From an uncultured Bacilli bacterium (GTDB lineage: Bacteria > Bacillota_I > Bacilli_A > RF39 > UBA660), in NCBI GenBank assembly GCA_910586425.1, contig CAJUHL010000024.1:1-22807 (forward strand): a stretch of 22,807 bases of DNA. The letters are read 5' to 3'. The stretch's first letter is position 1. Every line of letters starts with the position of its first letter. The position numbers were made by a program, and so were the translations under genes. Below are positions 11,924-22,094 of the stretch, in pieces. Under the pieces are notes generated by a model that saw only the letters and a program-made list of their open reading frames with translations, did not search any database and was not told the DNA's origin.

Positions 11924-12334
11924 GTGGGAATACTAAAAAAATGGTTAAGTGGCGATGACGATGTTTTCGCAAACGATATATCTGGTGACGAATATTATGA
12001 TTTGAAACCAGAAGAAGCACTACAAGAAAATGATGGACAGAGTAAAATGATTTTACTAGAACCGCGTGCTTATTCAGAATCACAACAGATTGCAGATCAT
12101 TTAAAAATGAGAAATACAGTAGTAGTAAATTTAAAAAGGGTGACATCTGACCAAGCCAAAAGAATCGTTGATTTTTTAGCAGGTACCATTTATGCGATTG
12201 GTGGGGATTTGCAAAAAATCGGTGGTGGGATTTTCCTTTGTACTCCAAATAATATTAATGTACAAGGAAAAATCACAGAAGAAACAGAAGGCAAAGATAT
12301 CCATGACAATGATGATATCAATATCGAGTGGTAA
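11924..12334 (+). CDS. sepF: Cell division protein SepF
   Basis: FtsZ-associated membrane anchor and ring-bundling protein of the Z-ring in Gram-positive bacteria. The 136-residue sequence has the expected architecture: an N-terminal amphipathic membrane-binding helix ([10 protein letters not shown]), an acidic linker (11-50) and the SepF core (about 53-120) with [48 protein letters not shown] and [13 protein letters not shown], ending in an acidic tail. The start is GTG 11924 with GGAGGA (11910-11915) 8 bases upstream; no better ATG exists. It precedes divIVA and ileS, as in the Bacillus ylm-divIVA-ileS region, but ylmE, ylmG and ylmH, which accompany it in Bacillus, are absent. divIVA has its own promoter overlapping the sepF end. 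Confidence 0.95.
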
Positions 12335-12368: not shown

Positions 12369-12395
12369 ATGGCGTAGTGCCAAGAGGTGAAGAAT

Positions 12396-12938
12396 ATGGA
12401 AAAATTTACAAGAACACTTCGTGGCTATGACCCTGATGAAGTGAATAATTTTTTGGATAAAATTATTGGTCAGGTAGAAGGCATGGTAGCTGAGATTAAG
12501 GAAAAAGATAAAAAAATTGCAGAACAAAATCAAAGACTAACAGAACAAAATCAAAAATTAGTAGAGCAAAAACAAAAACTTGTGGAACAAAACCAAAAAA
12601 TCTCAGAACTACAAAGTTTAGAAGCGGATAATAAAAATTTAAAACAAAAGTCAGAACAATATCAACGGATGGAAGCAACTTTCAATAAGGCAATTGTGAT
12701 GGCACAAAAAACTTCAGAACAACTTCGCGCTTCTGCGCAAAGGGAAAGTGACGCAGTGTTAGACGAAGCCAAAAAAAATGCCAATCGTATTATCAATGAA
12801 GCTCTTCTCAAAGCTGAAAAAACGGAACGAGAAGCGAATATGTTAAGAAGAAATATCAATATATTCAAGCGTAGAGTAAAAGATATTGTAGAAGCACAAT
12901 TAGAAGTCGTAAATGAATTAGATGAAGTAGAATTATAA
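12396..12938 (+). CDS. divIVA: DivIVA-family cell division/polarity protein
   Basis: Coiled-coil scaffold that recognises curved membrane at poles and septa. The 180-residue protein begins MEKFTRTLRGYDPDEVNNFLDKI, the DivIVA signature (F-x-x-x-x-R-G-Y-D-x-x-E-V-x-x-F-L), continues as a long coiled coil with four near-identical heptads EQNQRLT, EQNQKLV, EQKQKLV, EQNQKIS (43-70), and a second coiled-coil block (about 75-170, RESDAVLDEAKKNANRIINEALLKAEKTEREAN). Compared with Bacillus DivIVA it lacks roughly nine N-terminal residues before the membrane-contact F-R pair (here L8-R9). ATG 12396 is chosen because AGAGGTGA (12383-12390) precedes it, the in-frame GTG 12387 lies inside that SD, and an in-frame TAG at 12375 blocks any longer start. 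It lies between sepF and the ileS leader. Confidence 0.93.
   Translation: MEKFTRTLRGYDPDEVNNFLDKIIGQVEGMVAEIKEKDKKIAEQNQRLTEQNQKLVEQKQKLVEQNQKISELQSLEADNKNLKQKSEQYQRMEATFNKAIVMAQKTSEQLRASAQRESDAVLDEAKKNANRIINEALLKAEKTEREANMLRRNINIFKRRVKDIVEAQLEVVNELDEVEL
12522..12605 (+). repeat. 21-base tandem repeat, four copies, in divIVA
   Basis: Four consecutive 21-base units, each beginning GARCAAAA and encoding one heptad of the coiled coil (EQxQxxx). Units diverge mainly at third codon positions and the last two residues. Confidence 0.85.
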
Positions 12939-12944
12939 AACAGA

Positions 12945-13158
12945 TGAAAGAGACGGGAATCAATAGAAGGAAAAGAGAGTTCGTGGTAGGTGCAAACGAA
13001 ACAAATCATTGATTACAAATCACTCTGGATGTGTTTTTCTGAAATAATGAGGAAAAAACGGATTACTTACGTTATAAGTATTAAGTGTATGATTGGTTCA
13101 TAAATTAAGGTGGTACCACGGATTTGATTTCGCCCTTAAATTATGGGCTTTTTATTTT
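12945..13158 (+). promoter_or_regulatory. T-box leader of ileS (isoleucine-specific)
   Basis: tRNA-sensing attenuator that allows ileS transcription when uncharged tRNA-Ile binds. Visible elements: stem I 5' side AGAGAGT (12974-12980) pairing with ACTCT (13022-13026); conserved distal-loop stretch GGTAGGTGCAAACGAA; specifier codon ATC (13019-13021) directly before ACTCTGG, reading Ile; the T-box sequence AAGGTGGTACCACGG (13107-13121), which base-pairs the tRNA acceptor end and forms the antiterminator with CCTTAAATT; and the terminator GCCC (13132-13135)/GGGC (13145-13148) with TTTTTATTTT. A possible -10 TATAAA (12934-12939) overlaps the divIVA stop codon, but no good -35 accompanies it. Confidence 0.9.
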
Positions 13159-13175: not shown

Positions 13176-16100
13176 ATGAAACAATTTAAAGAATTAGACA
13201 AACGACCAGTGAGTCAAGTAGAAACTTCTATTTTGGAATCTTGGGGGAGTATCAATCAGATGCATGATGCTCAAGTTGCCAAAAATGAAAATAGCGAAAC
13301 ATTTGTATTTTATGATGGACCAGCTTTTGCCAATGGTTTTCCGGGATTACACCATATGGTTGCCAAAAACTTAAAAGATTGTATTACCAAATATCACGTA
13401 ATGAATGGTAAAAAAGTCATCCGTAAAATTGGATGGGATACCCATGGATTACCGATTGAAAATCATGTGGAAAAAAAATTAGGAATTTCTTCTAAAAAAG
13501 AAATTGAGACTTTGGGAATTGAAAAATTCAATGAAGAGTGCCGTCATAGTGTAAGAGAAAATGAGGCAGCATTTACCAACTTGACTGCTAAAATGGGACA
13601 ATTTTTTGATGTCGAAAATCCTTATTTGACCTATAAAAATGAATATATTGAAACCGAGTGGTGGATTTTAAAACAAATGTTCCAACAAGATATGTTTTAT
13701 GAAGGGACCCGAGTAGTACCGTATTGTCCGCATTGTGGGACTGGACTTGCAACCCATGAAGTTGCACAAAACTATCAGACAGATACAGCTATTACTGTTT
13801 ATGTCCCATTCAAGAAAAAGAATGAAGATGTATATTTCTTGGTATGGACCACAACACCTTGGACGTTAATTGCCAATGTGGCTCTTTGTGTCAATCCAGA
13901 AGAGGAATATGCTTTGGTAGAATCCAAAGGAACAAAGTTTATTTTAGCCAAAGCGTTAGTGGAAAAGGTACTTGGGGAAGAGGTTAAAATCATAGAAACC
14001 TATCAAGGGAAAGATTTAGAATATCAGGAGTATGAACAATTGATCCCATCTTTGTCTGTTGACCGAAAAGCGTTCTATGTAACTTGTGATTCCTATGTAA
14101 CTATGGATGATGGAACTGGTATTGTTCATATCGCACCTGCTTTTGGAGAAGATGATGCAAATGTTGGGAAACGTTATGATTTGCCATATATAAACCCAGT
14201 AGGTAAAGACGGATGTTATACAGAAGGGTTATGGACTGGAAAATTTGTACATGATGTCAATGAAGAAGTAGTGGATTATTTGAAAGAAACTGGAAAATTG
14301 TTCAAAAAGCAAAAATTAGCTCATGAATATCCACATTGCTGGCGTTGTGATACTCCACTTTTATACTATTCTATGCCAAGTTACTATATTAGGGTGAGCG
14401 AAATGACCAAGCAATTGGTTGAAGCCAATTCTAAAGTGAACTGGTATCCTGCTTATGTTGGGGAAAAACGCTTTGCCAATTGGTTGGCCAATGCCCGTGA
14501 TTGGAATGTATCACGTAGTCGTTATTGGGGGAGCCCAATCCCTTACTTTAAGTGCGAATGTGGTCATGCCCATATGGTAGGTTCTATTGCTGAATTAAGA
14601 GAGCTTTCTGTAGAAGAAATAGGTGAAAATTTTGATTTACATAAACCATATATTGATCAAATTCATTTGAAATGTCCAAATTGTGGTGAAAAGATGACCC
14701 GCATTCCTGATGTGTTAGATTGTTGGTTTGACTCTGGAGCAATGCCTTTTGCACAATATCACTATCCATTTGAAAACAAGGAATTATGGGAATCACAATT
14801 TCCAGCTGATTTTATATGTGAGGGAATTGATCAAACCAGAGGATGGTTTTACACCTTGATGGTGATTTCTACTTTTGTCAAAGGATGTTCGCCATTTAAG
14901 AATGTTTTGGTCAATGATTTATTATTAGACGCGGAAGGAAAAAAGATGTCTAAATCACGTGGTAATATTGTCGAACCATTTACAACGATTGAAGAATATG
15001 GTGCGGATACAGTTAGATTTTATCTGCCTTATGTATCCCCTGTGTGGACGCCTCTTAAATTTGATATTGATGGATTAAAAGAAGTTTATTCTAAATTCTT
15101 TAATCCTCTTAAAAATACTTATAATTTCTTTGTAATGTATGCTAATATCGATGGTATTGATACTGATTTGTGTCAAGTTCCATATGAAAAAAGAGAGGAA
15201 ATTGATAAATGGTTGTTATCTAAATACAACCAATTGGTTCAAAATGTACGTGATTCATTTGATGAATATGATTTGAATAAAGTAGTACATTATTTATCTT
15301 CTTTTGTTTCAGAAGATTTATCGAATTGGTATATCCGTCGTAATCGAAATCGATTCTGGGGTAGCGAACTAAATGATTCAAAGAAATCTGTTTATATGAC
15401 TACTTACGAGGTATTATTAGGACTATCCAAATTGATGGCACCAATTACCCCTTTCTTATCAGAAGAATTGTACCGCAATTTAACAGGCTTGGTATCTGTT
15501 CATTTGGAAGAATATCCACAAGTAAATTATGATCTCATCAATTCTCATATCGAACAAAAAATGGATTTGGTCAAGAATATTATTTCAATTGGACGTTATG
15601 TACGTGAAGAAACTAAAATTAAAGTACGTCAGCCGCTTGCACAAGCTTTACTGGATGCTAAAAATAAGGATTTGATTTTAGATTTGATTCCGCTGATTGA
15701 AGAAGAACTGAATATCAAAGAAGTGATTTTTACGGAAGATTTGAATGCTTATATGAATTTTTCAGTAAAACCAAATTTCAAAGTAGTAGGAAAAGTGTTT
15801 GGCTCTTTGATGAAAGAATTCCAAACGAAATTAGAAATGTTATCTGCGAGTGAAGTTACAGAATTACAAAAGGGAAATTCTATTGTAATGAACATTGGAG
15901 ATGAATCAAAGGAAATAATGCCTGATATGGTAGAAGTTCGTATTTCTTCGAAAGAAGGCTTTGATGTAGGTATGGAAAATAATCAGTTCATTATATTGGA
16001 TACCACTTTAACAGAGGAATTGATTGCTGAAGGAATCGCTCGTGAAATTGTATCTAAGGTTCAAAATTTAAGAAAACAAAAGGATTTCAATATTGTAGAT

Positions 16101-16271
16101 CGTATTCATTTATCGTATAGTGGAGATGCTGAAGTAACCAAAGCCATTCAATGTTATAAAGAATTTATCCAAAATGAAACACTTGCCGATACAATAGAAG
16201 AGAAAGCAAGCGGTGAATGTTTTGATATCAATGGACATGAAGTGACATTAGAATTAACATTGGTGCAATAA
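13176..16271 (+). CDS. ileS: Isoleucyl-tRNA synthetase, type 2 with GXHH signature
   Basis: Charges tRNA-Ile. The 1031-residue protein has the class I catalytic core with the first signature at FANGFPGLHHMVAKN (G57-L58-H59-H60) and KMSKS at 590-594; the CP1 editing domain (about 190-400) with TTPWTLIANVAL and GIVHIAPAFGEDD; zinc-binding pairs CECGH (about 459) and CPNCGEK (about 500), preceding DCWFDSGAMP; then the helical anticodon domain (about 650-820) and a C-terminal extension. Length and motif order match the eukaryote-like type 2 enzymes rather than the roughly 920-residue type 1 enzyme with a terminal zinc finger. The active-site signature is G-x-H-H, not H-x-G-H: the first and third residues are exchanged. 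This is the variant described for mupirocin hyper-resistant type 2 IleRS. ATG 13176 follows GAGAGGAA. It is T-box regulated and appears to be the only IleRS here. Confidence 0.96.
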   Translation: MKQFKELDKRPVSQVETSILESWGSINQMHDAQVAKNENSETFVFYDGPAFANGFPGLHHMVAKNLKDCITKYHVMNGKKVIRKIGWDTHGLPIENHVEKKLGISSKKEIETLGIEKFNEECRHSVRENEAAFTNLTAKMGQFFDVENPYLTYKNEYIETEWWILKQMFQQDMFYEGTRVVPYCPHCGTGLATHEVAQNYQTDTAITVYVPFKKKNEDVYFLVWTTTPWTLIANVALCVNPEEEYALVESKGTKFILAKALVEKVLGEEVKIIETYQGKDLEYQEYEQLIPSLSVDRKAFYVTCDSYVTMDDGTGIVHIAPAFGEDDANVGKRYDLPYINPVGKDGCYTEGLWTGKFVHDVNEEVVDYLKETGKLFKKQKLAHEYPHCWRCDTPLLYYSMPSYYIRVSEMTKQLVEANSKVNWYPAYVGEKRFANWLANARDWNVSRSRYWGSPIPYFKCECGHAHMVGSIAELRELSVEEIGENFDLHKPYIDQIHLKCPNCGEKMTRIPDVLDCWFDSGAMPFAQYHYPFENKELWESQFPADFICEGIDQTRGWFYTLMVISTFVKGCSPFKNVLVNDLLLDAEGKKMSKSRGNIVEPFTTIEEYGADTVRFYLPYVSPVWTPLKFDIDGLKEVYSKFFNPLKNTYNFFVMYANIDGIDTDLCQVPYEKREEIDKWLLSKYNQLVQNVRDSFDEYDLNKVVHYLSSFVSEDLSNWYIRRNRNRFWGSELNDSKKSVYMTTYEVLLGLSKLMAPITPFLSEELYRNLTGLVSVHLEEYPQVNYDLINSHIEQKMDLVKNIISIGRYVREETKIKVRQPLAQALLDAKNKDLILDLIPLIEEELNIKEVIFTEDLNAYMNFSVKPNFKVVGKVFGSLMKEFQTKLEMLSASEVTELQKGNSIVMNIGDESKEIMPDMVEVRISSKEGFDVGMENNQFIILDTTLTEELIAEGIAREIVSKVQNLRKQKDFNIVDRIHLSYSGDAEVTKAIQCYKEFIQNETLADTIEEKASGECFDINGHEVTLELTLVQ

Positions 16272-18896: not shown

Positions 18897-20891
18897 ATGA
18901 AACAGTTAGAAGAATTAAAAGGCCTTGGACCGAAAGGCTTAAGATTGTTAAAGCAATTAGGAATTCACACTATTTCTGATTTGGTTCATTATTATCCTTT
19001 TCGGTATGATATGTTAAAACGTACCAATCTAGATGATGCAAAAAAGGATGAGAAAGTAGTGATAGATGGGGTGATTGAAAGCTTTCCAAGTGTATTTCAT
19101 ATCAATCGGAAATTGGATAAAATGGATTTTAAAATGAATGCGCAGAATCATTTATTGCGGGTTACGATATTTAATCGTGGTTTTTTAAAAACACAATTGT
19201 CAATTGGAACCAAAATTATTGTAATAGGAAAATATGATCCAATTCATAATCATATTGTTGCTTCAGAATTACGTTTAGGAAATTTAGAAAAAGAAACCAT
19301 TGAACCTGTCTATCATACTGTATATGGTATTTCTAGTAAGCAAATATCCCATTATATTGGTATTGCACTTCAGGACTCTATTGATACAGAAGATTATGTA
19401 TTGCCAATTTACCAAAAAAAATATGGTTTTTTAGAGAAGGTCAAAAGCATTCGTATGGTACATCAGCCAACGAATGAAATGGATTTGAAAAAAGCAGAAG
19501 AACGAATTAAATATGAAGAACTATTTTTGTTTATGTTAAAAATGAATTATCTCAAAAATAATAAGCAAAATAAAATTGGATTAAAAAGAAGTGTTGATTA
19601 TCAAAAAGTACAAGAATTAATGGATAGATTGCCTTATACATTAACGGAGGATCAAGAAAAAAGTGTTCAGATGATTTATCAAGATTTGATGTCTCCCATT
19701 CGAATGAATCGATTATTACAAGGAGATGTAGGAAGTGGAAAAACGGTAGTCGCCTTTATTGCGTGCTATATCAATTATTTAAGTGGCTATCAAAGTGCTT
19801 TGATGGCACCAACGGAAATTTTAGCAGAACAACATTATCAAAATGCGATATTACTTTGTAAAAATACTGGGATGCGAATTGGTCTTTTGACGGGAAAAAT
19901 GAAAGTAAAAGAAAAACGGGATATATATGATAAATTAAAGCAAGGAAATATAGATTTCATTATTGGTACGCATGCTTTGTTTACAGAGACCGTTGCATAT
20001 GCGAATTTAGGACTTGTCATTACTGATGAGCAACATCGTTTTGGTGTAAATCAAAGAAGTAGTTTAAAAAATAAGGGTATTACCCCTGACATTTTATATA
20101 TGAGCGCGACTCCAATTCCAAGAACTTATGCTCTTACGTTATATGGAGATATGGATATTTCTAGTATTCGTACGATTCCAAGGGGAAGAAAACCTGTGAT
20201 TACAAAGATTGCTTCTCATCGTGATATGAAACAGGTTCTGAAAGAAATGTATGAACAAATGAAACAGGGACACCAAATTTATGTCATTGCTCCTCTGATT
20301 GAGGAAAGTGAAAATAGTGATTTTGAAAATGTGAATGAGCTTTCAGAAAAGATGAATAGGGCTTTTGGTAAGGTATTTCATATTGGGATGTTACATGGAA
20401 AGATGAAATCTGATGAAAAGGAAAGTGTAATGAATCAATTTGCAAATAATGAAATACAAATTTTAATTAGTACAACAGTAGTAGAAGTAGGGGTTGATGT
20501 CCCGAATGCAACAATGATTGTTATTTTTGATAGTTATCGTTTTGGTTTATCAGCATTACATCAGCTACGAGGACGTGTTGGTAGAAGTGAATTTCAATCA
20601 TATTGTATTTTGATGAGTGAGCGAGAAACAGAAAGACTGCAAATTTTAACACAGACCAATGATGGATTTAAGGTAAGTGAGGAAGATTTTTTATTGCGTG
20701 GTAGTGGTGATTTATTTGGGGCAAAGCAAAGTGGCGATATGGTATTTCAAATGGCTAATTTAAAAAACGATTTTAATATTTTATTAAATGCGAAACAGGA
20801 TAGTGAATTATTTTTAGAACGATTCGACAAAAAAGATTTTTTGTCAAATAAAATTATGAATTTAATTGAAAAATCAATGGATTTAGATTAA
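18897..20891 (+). CDS. recG: ATP-dependent DNA helicase RecG
   Basis: Branch-migrating helicase that regresses stalled forks and processes Holliday junctions. The 664-residue length is near the family's usual 680. N-terminal wedge domain (about 1-230) begins with the helix-hairpin-helix-like LKGLGPKGLRLLKQLGIHTISDLVHYYPFRYD and an OB fold (VVIDGVIESF). Helicase lobe 1 carries Walker A GDVGSGKT (276-283), a TGKMK motif and DEQH box D377-E378-Q379-H380 followed by RFGVNQR, and motif III MSATPIPRT. Lobe 2 carries TTVVEVGVDVPNATM, HQLRGRVGRSEFQSYC and the C-terminal LRGSGDLFGAKQSG region typical of RecG. ATG 18897 has GGTGAT upstream. In many Firmicutes recG is near fapR/plsX; here no such genes follow, and a small RNA and a mobile element begin downstream. 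Confidence 0.96.
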   Translation: MKQLEELKGLGPKGLRLLKQLGIHTISDLVHYYPFRYDMLKRTNLDDAKKDEKVVIDGVIESFPSVFHINRKLDKMDFKMNAQNHLLRVTIFNRGFLKTQLSIGTKIIVIGKYDPIHNHIVASELRLGNLEKETIEPVYHTVYGISSKQISHYIGIALQDSIDTEDYVLPIYQKKYGFLEKVKSIRMVHQPTNEMDLKKAEERIKYEELFLFMLKMNYLKNNKQNKIGLKRSVDYQKVQELMDRLPYTLTEDQEKSVQMIYQDLMSPIRMNRLLQGDVGSGKTVVAFIACYINYLSGYQSALMAPTEILAEQHYQNAILLCKNTGMRIGLLTGKMKVKEKRDIYDKLKQGNIDFIIGTHALFTETVAYANLGLVITDEQHRFGVNQRSSLKNKGITPDILYMSATPIPRTYALTLYGDMDISSIRTIPRGRKPVITKIASHRDMKQVLKEMYEQMKQGHQIYVIAPLIEESENSDFENVNELSEKMNRAFGKVFHIGMLHGKMKSDEKESVMNQFANNEIQILISTTVVEVGVDVPNATMIVIFDSYRFGLSALHQLRGRVGRSEFQSYCILMSERETERLQILTQTNDGFKVSEEDFLLRGSGDLFGAKQSGDMVFQMANLKNDFNILLNAKQDSELFLERFDKKDFLSNKIMNLIEKSMDLD

Positions 20892-21213: not shown

Positions 21214-21826
21214 TTATAAACTCATTTCATAGTCATCATTGTTTTTTGTAGAATCAATTTCAATATTGCTTTTTGCATTCTCATTTAGATTATCAATAAG
21301 TCCTATGATCTAGTGGGACAGCATTACCAAATACAAACCAATTATCATTATAATTTGTAAACTCCATAACTTTTTCTTTAAGTTCTTTTAGATCATTTAA
21401 CAACTCTTTAGGAATAGGTAGTGTTCTATTACTTGTGAGAGTTTTAGGACTTGTTATGATATATTTTTTACCATTTACATTGTCCGATAACCCTTTATTG
21501 ATTCTAATTGTACCATTTGTAAAATCAATATCATTCCAATTTAATGCCCTTGCTTCGCCTTTACGAAGTCCACAAAAGTATAAAGTTTTAAATAAACATT
21601 TAAATGTTAAATCTTCTTCTACTGAAATAAATTTGCTAAATTCTTCATAAGTCCAAAATTCCATTTCTTTTTTAATTTCATTTGGATTTGTAAAATTAGT
21701 CATTTTAGGATATATTTGATTGAAATTTAACCCATACCACTTTGTACCAAAATTCATAATTGTTTTTAAAAATTTGTAAATATAATTTCTAGTCCTATTT
21801 GATAAAGGATATTCTAAAATCATCAC
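21214..21826 (-). pseudogene. Tyrosine recombinase (integrase), truncated and internally deleted
   Basis: Remnant of a phage/ICE-type tyrosine recombinase. The open part (21293-21826, 177 residues) carries the end of the core-binding domain (SNRTRNYIYKFLKTIMNFG) and the start of the catalytic domain: FCGLRKGEARALNWNDIDF with catalytic Arg88, and SPKT with Lys128. It then stops. The second half of the active site (H-x-x-R, H/W and the nucleophilic Tyr) is missing. One frame over, immediately after the stop, an open tail IDNLNENAKSNIEID ... DDYEMSL runs to a TAA at 21214-21216 and looks like the original C-terminus, so about 100 codons were deleted with a frameshift. The N-terminal arm-binding domain is also absent: the ORF begins inside the end of the ATPase gene. 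It cannot be an active integrase. Confidence 0.8.
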
Positions 21827-22094
21827 TATTTAATTTACAATTCATAAGTTCAGTGCGACTTATTGTTTCTGTAGGATTCATCTCTGTACTTAAATAAAGT
21901 ACAGGAGTTTTATTTGTTTTTAAATCTAGAAAAAGAATACCATTACAGACTGAATTTGCTATTTGAAGAGCCATAGCAGATTTACCAACTTTGGCTTCTC
22001 CAAGTAAGCAATATAAACCATTTTCACGAATCATATCTTCGATGATATAATTCATATCGACAATACTACTTCTTAATTCTTCAATTGTTTTCAT
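21795..22094 (-). CDS. RecA/RepA-like ATPase fragment of a mobile element
   Basis: A 99-residue ORF with a Walker A motif, GEAKVGKSAMALQIA, preceded by LYCLL and followed by PVLYLSTEMNPTE, the pattern of RecA-like AAA_25/RepA-type replication ATPases of plasmids, phages and integrative elements. Those proteins are usually 250-400 residues, so only the N-terminal third remains. The frame crosses a junction near 21826-21838, after which the sequence reads as integrase in another frame, so the last residues (about FRISFIK) are foreign. Probably a deletion fused the ATPase gene to the middle of the integrase gene. Start ATG 22094 has AAGGA upstream; 11 bases separate it from the preceding ORF, suggesting one operon. 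A functional product is unlikely. Confidence 0.65.
   Translation of the reverse strand: MKTIEELRSSIVDMNYIIEDMIRENGLYCLLGEAKVGKSAMALQIANSVCNGILFLDLKTNKTPVLYLSTEMNPTETISRTELMNCKLNSDDFRISFIK

What the first reader, a model, noticed from the sequence alone, without database searches (positions are those of the whole stretch)
13344..13355. IleRS with swapped active-site signature GLHH instead of HxGH
The class I signature reads P-G-L-H-H at residues 56-60: the first and third residues of H-x-G-H are exchanged (G-x-H-H). Seen directly in the sequence. Established knowledge: type 2 IleRS carrying this exchange have been described as hyper-resistant to mupirocin while staying catalytically active. 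The length, domain order and KMSKS motif fit type 2. Inference: this anaerobe would be intrinsically very mupirocin-resistant through its sole, T-box-controlled housekeeping ileS, not through an acquired accessory gene.
Basis: partly seen in the sequence, partly recalled or inferred. Interest (0 to 1): 0.75.

Follow-up and report, generated by a model that had tools for sequence, protein, structure and literature searches.

The report
Isoleucine tRNA enzyme with swapped motif
The isoleucine-charging enzyme of this gut-type bacterium carries a rearranged active-site signature that is already known from other bacteria to make such enzymes extremely resistant to the antibiotic mupirocin, so this is a clear further example of a known thing.

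Summary
The ORF at 13176-16271 (+) encodes a 1031-aa isoleucyl-tRNA synthetase whose class I signature reads GLHH (residues 57-60, bases 13344-13355). It aligns gap-free with HVGH of solved type 2 enzymes; the best PDB hit is 8c8w, engineered to carry the same swap. It is type 2, sits behind a T-box with an AUC specifier, and is neither MupA nor MupB. The mechanism is published: Brkic et al. 2023 (PMC10485003) report 86 G/AXHH IleRS2 and a mupirocin Ki of 6.6 mM for one. Here 80 of 80 kept relatives have GXHH. So do 11 of 120 genomes sampled from the relatives' class, none with a second ileS over the cut-off. The window's own genome is not held and resistance was not measured, so 'sole' and 'very resistant' remain inferences. 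A possible extra: in GXHH rows the adenine-stacking His/Phe is Leu/Met (333 of 334) and residue 140 is Met (331 of 334), against 1 and 0 of 125 canonical type 2 rows; rows are redundant and confounded by ancestry. Verdict: new member of a known kind.

The parts
13176..16271 (+). ileS, type 2 isoleucyl-tRNA synthetase, 1031 aa
   Evidence: ORF; TIGR00392 927.1 bits over cut-off 621.4, MupA and MupB models below their 1900-bit cut-offs; PF00133, PF08264, PF19302
13344..13355 (+). swapped class I signature GLHH (residues 57-60)
14943..14957 (+). KMSKS second signature (residues 590-594), intact here
   Evidence: bases read
14913..14921 (+). Asn580-Asp581-Leu582, where type 1 has HGF and canonical type 2 mostly TGH or LGH; Leu582 aligns with His582 of PmIleRS2, the counterpart of Phe586 of PmIleRS1
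   Evidence: roles of those two residues from PMC10485003
13593..13595 (+). Met140 (aligned with Leu137 of PmIleRS2), present in nearly all GXHH rows and in none of the canonical ones compared
12935..13140 (+). T-box leader (RF00230)
   Evidence: 108 bits, gathering 93
13019..13021 (+). T-box specifier codon AUC (Ile)
   Evidence: place read from the Rfam alignment; ATCAC in 12 of 12 leaders that I chose to align
13111..13114 (+). T-box UGGU that would pair with the tRNA acceptor end (discriminator A)
   Evidence: read; pairing rule recalled
11924..12334 (+). sepF-like gene upstream (name recalled, no family scan)
   Evidence: ORF; homologue within 3 kb upstream in 27 of 80 relatives' loci
12387..12938 (+). 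divIVA-like gene directly upstream (name recalled, no family scan)
   Evidence: ORF; homologue within 3 kb upstream in 25 of 80 relatives' loci

Best explanation
The gene is most likely the housekeeping, T-box-controlled type 2 isoleucyl-tRNA synthetase of an uncultured Bacilli-type bacterium. Its class I signature has positions 1 and 3 exchanged (GLHH). [quoted passage not shown] ATP and isoleucyl-adenylate still bind because the tip of helix alpha1 is displaced in type 2 enzymes. The enzyme should therefore be active and mupirocin-resistant in the high micromolar to millimolar range, as an inherited clade trait and not an acquired resistance gene. Shown here: sequence, alignment, family, conservation in relatives, leader. 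Inferred by homology: catalysis, Ki, resistance of the organism.
For: In-register alignment to 8c8w, 8c8u and 1ile. Published kinetics: DrIleRS2 (ALHH) Ki 6600 uM against 8.1 uM when made canonical; PmIleRS2 1.08 uM against 460 uM with the swap (PMC10485003, parts 1-4 of 7 read). 80 of 80 kept relatives GXHH. The 11 GXHH genomes in the 120-genome class sample each have one match over the ileS cut-off. T-box with AUC specifier. GXHH rows form one side of a branch in both trees (support 89; 79).
Against: Nothing found against the motif or family. Ki and growth inhibition are unmeasured. The genome is not held, so a second, type 1 ileS in this strain is not excluded; 2 of 120 sampled genomes have a type 1 plus a type 2-sized match. 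Ki values of type 2 enzymes span a wide range (PMC4861432 passages). The divIVA/sepF neighbourhood is not general: neither was found upstream in 51 of 80 relatives' loci, some of which hold little upstream DNA.
Confidence: 0.93

Rival explanations
1. The swap was fixed for a reason other than mupirocin (neutral drift permitted by the type 2 architecture, another natural inhibitor, or tuned catalysis), and resistance is a by-product.
For: The motif is shared by 80 of 80 kept relatives, whose record titles name goat, roe deer, reindeer and water buffalo samples among others, by A. noterae, by one Bacteroides and by 120 of 121 rows of a Nonomuraea-like set. I noticed no mupirocin-related gene in the window, but did not search for one.
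Against: In published enzymes the swap raises the mupirocin Ki about 10^2- to 10^3-fold at limited catalytic cost (PMC10485003). This rival concerns cause, not effect.
Confidence: 0.4
2. The genome also encodes a mupirocin-sensitive type 1 IleRS and this gene is an accessory resistance copy.
For: 2 of 120 sampled class genomes carry a type 1 plus a type 2-sized match: G079 (HVGH) and G061 (in-frame TGA, motif not read).
Against: 8 of 8 relatives' genomes and 11 of 11 GXHH genomes of the class sample show only one full-length IleRS match; the leader is a T-box with an Ile specifier.
Confidence: 0.04
3. The GLHH reading is an assembly or frame error and the true motif is elsewhere.
For: None.
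Against: Same motif class in 80 of 80 kept relatives and gap-free alignment to solved structures.
Confidence: 0.005

Closest known systems
Non-canonical G/AXHH IleRS2 group (Brkic et al. 2023, PMC10485003; S. griseus and D. radiodurans IleRS2)
   Same: Type 2 enzyme with first and third signature positions swapped, KMSKS-type second signature, housekeeping role
   Different: A Bacilli member with N-D-L before KMSKS, where the Nonomuraea-like GVHH set mostly has LGL (116 of 121) and T. thermophilus has HGL; no kinetics for it
P. megaterium IleRS2 (8c8u/8c8v canonical; 8c8w engineered GVHH)
   Same: Same architecture over the aligned length; the mutant carries the same swap and is the best PDB match
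   Different: Natural PmIleRS2 is HVGH, with Trp130, Leu137 and His582 where the window has Phe133, Met140 and Leu582
MupA / MupB acquired mupirocin-resistance IleRS
   Same: Related to type 2 (MupA groups there in both trees); known for mupirocin resistance
   Different: The MupA read here is HAGH, lies on a plasmid and is 38.4% identical; the window scores far below both NCBIfam cut-offs
Type 1 IleRS of other Bacilli
   Same: Same reaction
   Different: Shorter open frames (mostly about 870-970 aa); 28 of 28 compared rows have HXGH and HGF before KMSKS

Membership tests
Isoleucyl-tRNA synthetase (TIGR00392) | score over curated cut-off | tested here: met
   927.1 against 621.4 bits
IleRS type 2 | C-terminal region of the type 2 kind and grouping with type 2 enzymes | tested here: met
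   PF19302/DUF5915 at 840-1027 (that this domain marks type 2 is recalled, but it is also listed for the canonical type 2 hits); both trees separate it from 8 type 1 rows with support 100
Non-canonical G/AXHH IleRS2 | Gly/Ala at position 1 and His at position 3 of the signature, in register | tested here: met
   GLHH at residues 57-60
Non-canonical G/AXHH IleRS2 | mupirocin Ki in the high micromolar to millimolar range with retained activity | not testable with these tools
   needs enzyme kinetics
Acquired MupA/MupB | score over NCBIfam exception cut-off (1900 bits) | tested here: not met
   841.5 and 832.5 bits
T-box regulated ileS | T-box leader with an Ile specifier codon | tested here: met
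   RF00230 108 bits; AUC at the specifier place; ATCAC in 12 of 12 aligned leaders
Sole housekeeping ileS | no second ileS in the genome | tested here: inconclusive
   own genome not held; one full-length IleRS in 8 of 8 relatives' genomes

The most novel reading that the evidence does not exclude
The signature swap is part of a coupled rewiring of the ATP site. When His moves to position 3, the adenine-stacking residue before KMSKS (Phe in type 1, His in most canonical type 2) becomes Leu/Met, Met appears at position 140, and in the Bacilli-Clostridia clade the otherwise constant Gly at 581 becomes Asp/Glu; part of that clade further changes KMSKS to KMHKS. These second sites could help explain why a natural non-canonical enzyme such as DrIleRS2 shows no catalytic penalty while engineered swaps lose some activity.
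Probability: 0.25. Interest if true: 0.5.

Novelty: new member of a known kind. Interest (0 to 1): 0.27.

Why it matters
It puts the published mupirocin hyper-resistance motif in what appears to be the only IleRS of a broad set of uncultured Bacilli, many from animal guts, so mupirocin resistance there is probably inherited and not acquired. The correlated second-site residues give a concrete, checkable hypothesis for how a class I synthetase tolerates a change in its most conserved motif.

Tried and rejected
Considered and rejected: frame or assembly error (80 of 80 kept relatives agree); a MupA/MupB homologue (the MupA read is HAGH); a general oddity of HIGH motifs in these genomes (canonical in the 5 of 7 stretches where a motif could be read: 2 ValRS, 3 LeuRS; L134 gave KMSKS but no HIGH-type motif, and L139 only an unrelated string in a 402-aa frame).

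Led nowhere: a strict specifier pattern matched only 8 of 57 leaders with a T-box core, so it was replaced by an alignment of 12 chosen leaders. The Bacteroides PDB search printed the P. megaterium alignments again and not the eukaryotic ones. Paper searches on Bifidobacterium and gut mupirocin resistance listed nothing on GXHH that I could see in titles and abstract starts. Structure prediction was not run: it returns no coordinates, and the aligned solved structures already answer the register question.

Results against the extra reading: canonical L116 also has Leu at 582, and so has T. thermophilus with HVGH (the paper infers a reversion there). Three GVHH enzymes of the Nonomuraea-like set have Leu at 140 and one has His at 582. 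Asp/Glu581 is absent from that set and from Bacteroides. The Paenibacillus, Nonomuraea-like and window sets are close kin and not de-duplicated (P0001 is the window's own protein), so the counts are not independent. One GXHH origin is neither shown nor rejected (support 89 and 79; the two long branches Nonomuraea and Bacteroides meet, which the tool warns may be false), while the paper infers at least two origins.

Rows dropped before counts: of 129 candidate proteins, L103, L107 (short or broken), L122 (in-frame TGA) and L130 (not matched by my expression) gave none; L115 duplicates L111 and was removed, leaving 124. P0339 lacks the motif region; it was kept in the counts of positions 140 and 580-582. 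Without it the counts are 332 of 333 and 330 of 333. The trees used 43 and 44 rows that I chose out of these.

Full report
Observation. The ORF at 13176-16271 (+) encodes 1031 aa. Residues 56-60 are P-G-L-H-H, with GLHH at bases 13344-13355. phmmer against PDB sequences aligns this gap-free, in the segment YDGPAFANGFPGLHHMVAKNLKD, with the HVGH of P. megaterium IleRS2 (8c8u, 8c8v) and T. thermophilus IleRS (1ile). The top hit is 8c8w, identified in the paper's data statement as the GVHH mutant of PmIleRS2. KMSKS is intact at residues 590-594.

Family. NCBIfam TIGR00392 (ileS) scores 927.1 bits against a cut-off of 621.4. MupA and MupB models score 841.5 and 832.5 against cut-offs of 1900, so it is not an acquired mup gene by that test. 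Pfam gives the class I catalytic domain, the anticodon-binding domain and DUF5915. In trees of 43 and 44 chosen rows it groups with type 2 enzymes, separated from 8 type 1 rows with support 100.

What is already published. I read parts 1-4 of 7 of the main text of Brkic et al. 2023 (PMC10485003) and ran a term search in it. It reports 86 G/AXHH and 77 HXGH IleRS2 in a tree of 379 IleRS, no IleRS1 with the swap, and a Ki of 6600 uM for D. radiodurans IleRS2 (ALHH) falling to 8.1 uM when made canonical. Putting the swap into PmIleRS2 and TtIleRS2 raised Ki from 1.08 to 460 uM and from 0.20 to 35 uM. The mechanism it proposes: the third His takes the catalytic place of the first and clashes with mupirocin, tolerated because the helix alpha1 tip is shifted in type 2. 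PMC4861432 (passages only) places bIleRS2 predominantly in firmicutes and actinobacteria and mentions clostridia. PMC10177144 (passages only) notes mupirocin resistance of gut Sarcina, without linking it to IleRS.

Distribution. A genome-contig search confirmed 151 relatives and kept the best 80, 58-90% identical. 80 of 80 carry the swap: GLHH 75, GVHH 4, GIHH 1. A family search over 120 genomes drawn evenly from the class of the closest relative found matches over the cut-off in 116. Signatures were read only in the stretches fetched (30 loci, 16); the rest were classed by frame length alone, and most are type 1-sized. Fifteen genomes have a type 2-sized match (frame of 1030 aa or more). Eleven are GXHH and have no second match over the cut-off (G001 read as L082, the rest as L117, L118, L120, L121, L123-L128). 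Two are HIGH without a second match (G059, G074). Two stand beside a type 1 (G079, HVGH; G061, in-frame TGA, motif not read). The clostridial Acetoanaerobium noterae enzyme is GIHH and 54% identical. A Staphylococcus aureus MupA is HAGH. In both trees the GXHH rows lie on one side of a branch, with support 89 and 79, so one origin in this sample is allowed but not shown.

Housekeeping context. A T-box (RF00230, 108 bits) fills 12935-13140. The Rfam alignment puts AUC at the specifier place, and ATCAC is present in 12 of 12 leaders that I chose to align (window and 11 relatives). A T-box core lies within 600 bases upstream in 57 of 80 relatives' loci. sepF- and divIVA-like genes lie upstream here; homologues lie within 3 kb upstream in 27 and 25 of 80 loci, and neither in 51 of 80, some of which hold little upstream DNA, so this neighbourhood is not general. 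No whole genome is held for the window. In 8 of 8 relatives' genomes searched (enzyme 62-90% identical) only one full-length IleRS was found; the other matches are weaker and partial. Of 7 such stretches fetched, 2 read as ValRS (HLGH) and 3 as LeuRS (HAGH, HAGH, HVGH), all canonical; 2 gave no readable motif.

Possible second-site signature. The alignments hold 367 proteins and 120 more from a Nonomuraea query; rows were not de-duplicated. Residue 582 aligns with His582 of PmIleRS2, the counterpart of Phe586 of PmIleRS1, which stacks on adenine (roles from the paper). It is Phe in 28 of 28 type 1 rows and His in 124 of 125 canonical type 2 rows, 121 of which come from the Paenibacillus query and locus. 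On the GXHH side it is Leu or Met in 212 of 212 rows of the Bacilli-Clostridia set, 120 of 121 of the Nonomuraea-like set and 1 of 1 Bacteroides: 333 of 334. Met140 is in 212 of 212, 118 of 121 and 1 of 1: 331 of 334, against 0 of 125 canonical type 2 and 0 of 28 type 1. One row (P0339) lacks the motif region; without it the counts are 332 of 333 and 330 of 333. Residue 581 is Gly in all canonical type 2 and type 1 rows, in the Nonomuraea-like set and in Bacteroides, but Asp/Glu in 212 of 212 Bacilli-Clostridia GXHH rows. KMSKS reads KMHKS in 31 of those 212, all 58-65% identical to the window, and not in the window itself.

Against this: T. thermophilus (HVGH) and canonical L116 also have Leu582; three Nonomuraea-like GVHH enzymes have Leu140 and one has His582; most rows are close kin and the sets were chosen by similarity. 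A term search of the paper finds His582 once and Phe586 twice, as stacking residues, not as partners of the motif (parts 5-7 and supplements not read). Paper searches listed one paper on GXHH IleRS, this one; by title the other papers holding the strings GXHH or KMHKS are unrelated. I treat the second-site idea as a lead at probability 0.25.

Verdict. The housekeeping, clade-wide nature is supported in relatives; resistance of this organism is a strong homology inference. It is a new member of a known kind, of modest interest.

Noticed in passing
30 loci between L037 and L079, and L127; not the window: The KMSKS signature reads KMHKS in 31 of 212 Bacilli-Clostridia GXHH IleRS rows, so both class I signatures are altered there; the Nonomuraea-like set has KMSKH (121 of 121) and the Bacteroides enzyme KMSKR.
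   Followed up: partly
L135, L136 against L138: Relatives with 81-84% identical IleRS carry LeuRS frames of different length and HIGH context (927 and 945 aa, GVGLHAGHPEGYT; 811 aa, GSGLHVGHVRSYT), which may mean replacement of leuS within the clade.
   Followed up: partly
window 21293-22094 (-): Beyond a recG-like gene (name recalled) at 18897-20891 lie a phage-integrase-family ORF (PF00589) and an overlapping AAA_25 ORF (PF13481), perhaps a decayed or edge-of-element module.
   Followed up: partly
L122 (G061:C1:1037500-1042600): A genome with a type 1 ileS also has a type 2-sized ileS match holding one in-frame TGA; not read through.
   Followed up: no
L131 and L140: The plasmid collection holds chromosome-sized records labelled plasmids (Acetoanaerobium 2.6 Mb, Nonomuraea 11.9 Mb), which is probably how their ileS appears there.
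   Followed up: no
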